A stretch of 64,000 nucleotides of DNA from Methanomassiliicoccaceae archaeon COG_1 (GTDB lineage: Archaea > Thermoplasmatota > Thermoplasmata > Methanomassiliicoccales > Methanomethylophilaceae): NCBI GenBank assembly GCA_028561875.1, contig JAQQTI010000005.1, forward strand, positions 62,001 to 126,000, read 5' to 3'. The notes beneath the pieces were generated by a model that searched no databases, was not told where the DNA came from, and saw only the letters and a program-made list of their open reading frames with translations. Of the stretch, positions 10,834 to 11,538 are shown in pieces. Numbering within the stretch: the first letter of the stretch is position 1; the number at the start of each line of letters is the position of its first letter. The position numbers and the translations under genes were made by a program.

Positions 10834-11538
10834 TCAACCGATCGAGGTGATTATGTTATGACTGCTCAGGATGTGATCCTTCAGCTTCGAGGCCTTCACC
10901 AGCCCCTGCTCCTCGGCGAGCCTGCACCATCTCACGGCCTCGCTGTCGTCGACAGGGACGCCCCTGCCGTGATGATAGGCCAGCGCCATTCCGAACTGCG
11001 CCTTGGCCGACCCCATCTCCGCCGCTTTCATGAACCATTCTAAGGCCTTCGAATCGTCCTGCGGGACGCCCCTGCCGAAGCGGTGCATGGTGCCGACGTT
11101 ATACATCGCCTTGGCGTTACCAAGGTCGGCGGCCTAGAGGTAGTTCTTCATCGCCCTCTCAGGGTCCCTTTCGGCACCGAAACCGTTCTCGAACATCACA
11201 CCGAGGTTGAACATCGCCTTCGCGCATCCTTTCCCCGCGGAGGCCTCGAAAAAGCCGCGGGCTTTCACGTAGTCCCGCGGGACGCCCCTGCCGAGGTAGT
11301 AAGCGATGCCGAGACGGAAGGCGCAGCCCATGTCGTCAGGAAACCTGGCGTACATCCGGACCGCGGAGGCAGCGTCCGCCTCGCACCCCTCGCCCTTATC
11401 GAGCATCCTCCCTGCGCGGTACGCCGCCGGGGCGTACCCCCTGACGGCCGCGTCCGCGAAGGCGCTCAATGCCTCTGCGACGTTCCCCTTGGAGAGGGCC
11501 TCCTCGGCGTCCCTGTACTCGCCCTCAGCGGACTTCAT
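10834..11538 (-). CDS. Sel1-repeat protein with one in-frame TAG (possible pyrrolysine)
   Basis: Two open frames (11538-11134 and 11133-10834) form one continuous Sel1/TPR-like protein of about 234 residues, interrupted by a single TAG at 11136-11134 (minus). The repeat register continues exactly across it: AMKNYL-TAG-AADLGNAKAM lines up with ALEWFMKAAEMGSAKAQ in the next repeat, so the TAG sits where the neighbour has lysine. Sel1 repeats form helical solenoids that bind partner proteins. If the organism decodes UAG as pyrrolysine, a lysine derivative, the gene may be intact; otherwise it is a pseudogene or truncated. No second disabling change is visible. Confidence 0.75.

What the first reader, a model, noticed from the sequence alone, without database searches (positions are those of the whole stretch)
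10834..11538. Sel1-repeat gene with a single in-frame TAG at a lysine position: candidate pyrrolysine protein
The Sel1 repeat register runs unbroken across TAG 11136-11134. In the next repeat the same position is lysine (FMKAAEMG against YL-TAG-AADLG). TAG is almost absent as a stop codon in this window, and Methanomassiliicoccales are known to decode UAG as pyrrolysine in methylamine methyltransferases. A pyrrolysine in a scaffold protein would be new. A simple Lys-to-stop mutation is the competing explanation.
Basis: partly seen in the sequence, partly recalled or inferred. Interest (0 to 1): 0.75.

Follow-up and report, generated by a model that had tools for sequence, protein, structure and literature searches.

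The report
Sel1 scaffold gene with pyrrolysine codon
A protein-scaffold gene in a gut-type methanogen carries one TAG 'stop' where its relatives have lysine; the organism has the full machinery for reading TAG as the rare amino acid pyrrolysine, so the gene is most likely still made full length, as has been predicted before for other genes, including a Sel1 gene, in close relatives.

Summary
An in-frame TAG (11136-11134, -) interrupts an otherwise intact 234-residue Sel1 gene (11538-10834). The genome carries pylT (CUA), pylS, pylB, pylC and pylD and TAG-bearing mtmB, mtbB and mttB. Nine syntenic orthologues (PLD-GNAT-Sel1) in the genus have lysine at that position (7 AAG, 2 AAA), so one A-to-T change made the TAG; no other species shares it. 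Downstream codon usage, repeat register, C-terminal motif and TATA box are intact. In half of the genome, internal stops with domain or orthologue continuity are TAG (methyltransferases, two more Sel1 genes, single-copy PheS at codon 65, a glycosyltransferase, others); none of ten TGA/TAA look-alikes tested is spanned by a domain. In two sister species a different TAG in the glycosyltransferase is kept at dS 0.18, with dN/dS about 0.04 behind it. Most likely the gene is read through with pyrrolysine at a tolerated lysine site, acquired neutrally. This is not new in kind: Borrel 2014 lists a putative Pyl-containing Sel1 protein in Ca. M. alvus, and ISO4-H5 was reported with 46 in-frame amber genes. 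TAG still ends about 7% of genes here, so complete reassignment is not supported.

The parts
10834..11538 (-). Sel1-repeat gene, 234 codons plus TGA, read through one TAG; scaffold-type solenoid protein
   Evidence: PF08238 146 bits; AlphaFold2 pLDDT 95.6 over the whole read-through protein
11134..11136 (-). in-frame TAG, codon 135, inferred pyrrolysine; Lys in 9 of 9 syntenic orthologues (7 AAG, 2 AAA)
11116..11223 (-). Sel1 repeat that contains the TAG (40.8 bits with the TAG inside)
   Evidence: G000:C5:73116-73223
10903..11115 (-). two Sel1 repeats downstream of the TAG, in register (46.0 and 36.3 bits)
11560..11567 (-). TATA-like box TTTTATAT about 25 nt upstream of the ATG (probably near-leaderless transcript); an A/T-rich TATA-like element lies at a similar distance in the orthologues
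   Evidence: by eye; inference
11555..12007 (-). GNAT acetyltransferase-like gene, syntenic partner upstream of the Sel1 gene (family name from memory, not profile-tested)
12004..13983 (-). phospholipase-D-like gene with a C-terminal membrane segment, syntenic partner (family name from memory, not profile-tested)

Best explanation
A lysine codon (AAG) in a Sel1 scaffold gene mutated to TAG in this species. The cell makes tRNA-Pyl (CUA) and charges it with pyrrolysine (PylS; Pyl made by PylB, PylC and PylD), so most ribosomes insert pyrrolysine at residue 135 and finish the 234-residue solenoid. Some may terminate and leave a 134-residue fragment. The site is near the end of a helix in a Sel1 repeat, where a lysine-like side chain is tolerated, so the change was near-neutral and kept; the Pyl has no special catalytic role here. 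Shown: TAG, gene integrity, complete pyl genes, lysine in orthologues, sense use of TAG elsewhere in the genome. Inferred: insertion of Pyl at this codon, its efficiency, and neutrality.
For: Complete cassette: tRNA-Pyl with CTA anticodon, PylS 261 bits, PylC 333 bits, PylD 173 bits, all over the NCBIfam cut-offs, PylB 395 bits over the cut-off. TAG inside mtbB and mttB spanned by PF09505 and PF06253, and in two mtmB-like genes. Nine syntenic orthologues with Lys at the site. Downstream part intact: coding bias, conserved to the C-terminal N-I/V-I/V motif, identity to orthologues not lower after the TAG than before it (0.47 against 0.40; orthologue pairs 0.62 against 0.53). TATA-like box kept. 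Single-copy pheS has TAG at codon 65, inside NF003210 (residues 14-507), and relatives of the genus align across it at 73-77% identity. No domain spans the stop in any of ten TGA/TAA look-alikes. In two sister species (G012, whose length matches ISO4-H5, and G007) a TAG in the glycosyltransferase orthologue is kept, with dN 0.007 and dS 0.185 downstream. Published precedent: PMC4153887, PMC5011839.
Against: No peptide or transcript evidence. No other species shares this TAG, so there is no direct selection evidence at this codon. TAG still ends about 7% of confident gene calls, and those TAGs have no nearer back-up stop than TGA/TAA-ended genes (median 54 against 35 codons, p = 0.12), so termination at TAG also occurs or its read-through is tolerated. 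The window genome is a draft (86% complete), with no second strain to exclude an assembly error.
Confidence: 0.82

Rival explanations
1. Recent loss of function: the TAG is a nonsense mutation that mostly stops translation, and the gene is a young pseudogene or a shortened 134-residue protein.
For: All orthologues have an ordinary codon; TAG works as a stop in about 7% of genes here; Sel1 genes are a multi-copy family here (about 13 loci) and the G005 orthologue has a C-terminal frameshift.
Against: Downstream region intact in frame, bias and conservation; interruptions with domain or orthologue continuity are TAG, with none among ten TGA/TAA look-alikes tested; the cell has the complete suppression machinery and must read TAG in single-copy pheS.
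Confidence: 0.12
2. Two separate proteins: termination at TAG and re-initiation at ATG 11106, ten codons later, giving two part-solenoids.
For: In-frame ATGs lie 10 and 16 codons after the TAG.
Against: No convincing ribosome-binding site before ATG 11106 (sequence); the ATG lies inside a Sel1 repeat helix; orthologues are single proteins.
Confidence: 0.03
3. Assembly or sequencing error: the true codon is AAG.
For: Draft genome with no second strain; one base differs from the orthologue codon.
Against: Several independent TAGs of the same kind in this genome and none of TGA/TAA type among those tested; an error process would not prefer TAG.
Confidence: 0.03

Closest known systems
Putative Pyl-containing Sel-1 domain protein AGI86303.1 (389 aa) of Ca. 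Methanomethylophilus alvus, Borrel et al. 2014, PMC4153887 Table 7
   Same: Sel1 protein with an in-frame amber codon in a Pyl-decoding Methanomassiliicoccales archaeon
   Different: Different length (389 against 234 aa); whether it is the same Sel1 family or site could not be compared here
In-frame amber genes of ISO4-H5 (46 genes), PMC5011839
   Same: Same genus by the genome set used here (G012 has the ISO4-H5 length); many non-methyltransferase genes with in-frame TAG, including adenylate kinase
   Different: No Sel1 gene is named there; its syntenic orthologue of this gene has Lys AAA (L011)
MtmB, MtbB and MttB methylamine methyltransferases
   Same: In-frame TAG read by tRNA-Pyl in the same cell
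   Different: There the TAG is conserved across species and Pyl is catalytic; here it is private and at an ordinary lysine site
Pyl code, all TAG read as Pyl (Kivenson et al., Science 2025; from memory, not held in the library)
   Same: Proteome-wide sense use of TAG in methanogenic archaea
   Different: TAG still ends about 7% of confident genes here, so complete reassignment is not shown

Membership tests
Pyl-decoding organism | tRNA-Pyl with CUA anticodon and PylS | tested here: met
Pyl-decoding organism | Pyl biosynthesis genes pylB, pylC, pylD | tested here: met
   all over NCBIfam cut-offs
Pyl-containing protein | single in-frame TAG with protein homology continuous across it | tested here: met
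Pyl-containing protein | pyrrolysine found at the residue by mass spectrometry | not testable with these tools
Dedicated, functional Pyl site (as in MtmB/MtbB/MttB) | TAG conserved among orthologues | tested here: not met
   Lys in 9 of 9 syntenic orthologues, Arg in two further homologues
Sel1-like repeat protein | PF08238 repeats above the curated cut-off | tested here: met
   146.3 bits against 30.7
Sel1-like repeat protein | alpha/alpha solenoid fold like solved Sel1 proteins | tested here: met
   6ok3 E 9e-14, TM 0.85; HcpC 1ouv TM 0.77
Pyl code (complete reassignment of TAG) | TAG not used as a stop | tested here: not met
   about 37 of 535 confident genes end in TAG with non-coding sequence behind it

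The most novel reading that the evidence does not exclude
Sel1 scaffolds in this lineage gain TAG codons more often than other genes (3 of about 10 Sel1 genes in the sampled half against 4-5 of about 520 others, p about 2e-4, post hoc), and the TAG acts as a switch: full-length scaffolds only when methylamines feed Pyl synthesis.
Probability: 0.05. Interest if true: 0.75.

Novelty: new member of a known kind. Interest (0 to 1): 0.3.

Why it matters
It adds a well-documented case of neutral spread of pyrrolysine beyond methylamine methyltransferases, with the ancestral codon (AAG), nine syntenic orthologues and an independent test in sister species. The TAG in single-copy pheS, if confirmed, would make pyrrolysine decoding essential for all protein synthesis in this species, which is testable. 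It also warns that standard gene callers cut such genes in two.

Tried and rejected
A strain-level test was not possible: one genome per species is held, and the genome-contig scan returned only Ca. Methanomethylophilus sp. 1R26 and UBA2219 at about 40% identity. A PYLIS-like RNA structure after the TAG: z = -1.36, not convincing. Back-up stops after TAG-ended genes: no difference. An apparent internal TAG in the window near 41518 is a gene junction with a spurious upstream frame, and the long open extension behind the TAG at 38918 is antisense to the next gene. Several TAG candidates of the mechanical scan had only weak coding scores and were not counted. The 2025 Science paper on an all-TAG Pyl code could not be found in the library.

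Full report
Observation. The gene lies on the minus strand at 11538-10834. It has one in-frame stop, TAG at 11136-11134, codon 135 of 234, and ends in TGA. The Sel1 repeat that contains the TAG scores 40.8 bits with the TAG in it, and the following repeats stay in register. Codon bias is coding-like on both sides of the TAG.

Machinery. The window is G000:C5:62001-126000. The genome has two mtmB-like genes with TAG, tRNA-Pyl (CTA), pylS, pylC, pylD and a methylamine-type corrinoid activase in one cluster on contig 1. pylB is on contig 4. mtbB and mttB with TAG are near the start of contig 1.

Orthologues. PLD-GNAT-Sel1 is conserved in nine other species of the genus. All nine have lysine at the TAG position, seven AAG and two AAA; two further homologues have arginine AGG. 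The simplest origin is AAG to TAG. The part after the TAG is as conserved, relative to the part before it, as in the orthologues, down to the last residues. Each species has an A/T-rich TATA-like element some 25-30 nt before the start (by eye).

Is TAG read as sense here? In about half of the genome (760 kb) I looked for stops with coding sequence on both sides. The TAG cases with support are: four methyltransferase genes; three Sel1 genes (this one, C5:126644, C3:44996); single-copy pheS at codon 65, spanned by NF003210 and by 73-77% identical relatives; a PDDEXK nuclease-like gene spanned by PF12705 (a weak match); a glycosyltransferase with 62% identical relatives across it; and an AAA_14/DUF4143 protein whose TAG lies between its two domains. 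In ten TGA or TAA look-alikes, those with the least obvious start nearby among them, no Pfam domain spans the stop; nearly all are plainly two neighbouring genes. In the glycosyltransferase, G012 and G007 share a TAG at another lysine site. Between them dS is 0.18 and dN 0.007 downstream, so the region behind a TAG has been under purifying selection since those species split. That is direct evolutionary evidence for read-through in this genus.

But TAG is not fully reassigned. About 37 of 535 confident genes end in TAG with non-coding sequence behind it, pylS among them. The state is dual use, as Borrel et al. describe for the order.

Structure. AlphaFold2 models the read-through protein as one continuous solenoid (pLDDT 95.6). 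Residue 135 lies near the end of helix 126-138, and the closest solved folds are bacterial Sel1 proteins. Surface exposure is inferred from Sel1 architecture, not measured.

Prior work. Borrel et al. 2014 predicted 16 non-methyltransferase Pyl proteins in Ca. M. alvus, one a Sel-1 protein, and argued that in a suppressing cell a new in-frame TAG is a stable mutation. The ISO4-H5 paper reports 46 genes with in-frame amber codons. From memory, a 2025 Science paper described archaea in which all TAG codons are Pyl; it was not available here. The finding is therefore a new member of a known kind.

Function. Sel1 repeats are protein-protein scaffolds (established knowledge). Nothing here identifies the partner. 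The conserved PLD-GNAT neighbours suggest a shared setting, but the Sel1 gene appears to have its own promoter. A special role for Pyl at residue 135 is unlikely, because relatives use lysine.

Noticed in passing
L062:7375-8910 (TAG at G000:C1:327567): Single-copy pheS (PheRS alpha) has an in-frame TAG at codon 65, where relatives have Lys, Arg, Ser, Glu and others; if translated as Pyl, Pyl decoding is essential for all translation in this species.
   Followed up: yes
L138 and L139 (G012, G007): Glycosyltransferase orthologues in two sister species share a TAG at a lysine site, with strong purifying selection behind it (dS 0.18, dN 0.007).
   Followed up: yes
L044:17399-18541 (TAG at G000:C1:17992): The same glycosyltransferase gene in the window's genome has its own TAG at a different, variable site.
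   Followed up: yes
L040:6090-7124 (TAG at G000:C5:126644, just right of the window): A second Sel1 gene with one in-frame TAG, at a position that varies in orthologues (Glu, Pro, Asp, Ala, Gly).
   Followed up: yes
L042:7614-9596 (TAG at G000:C3:44996): ABC-ATPase plus Sel1 fusion protein with an in-frame TAG inside a Sel1 repeat.
   Followed up: partly
L118:1508-2401 (G005): A Sel1 gene of another species in the genus also has one in-frame TAG inside a repeat.
   Followed up: partly
L043:6353-6355: pylS of this genome ends in TAG, while the other genomes of the genus checked use TGA; more distant members of the order also end pylS in TAG. Read-through would add 51 residues.
   Followed up: partly
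G000, about 13 Sel1 loci: Sel1 genes seem over-represented among non-methyltransferase genes with internal TAG (3 of about 10 in the sample); post hoc.
   Followed up: partly
L008 (G005), C-terminal end of the Sel1 orthologue: The orthologue is cut short by a frameshift; the lost C-terminal motif continues in another frame, so this is either an assembly error or real decay.
   Followed up: no
window 12004-13983 and 14045-16018: Two tandem, similar-looking phospholipase-D-like membrane-anchored proteins upstream of the Sel1 gene.
   Followed up: no
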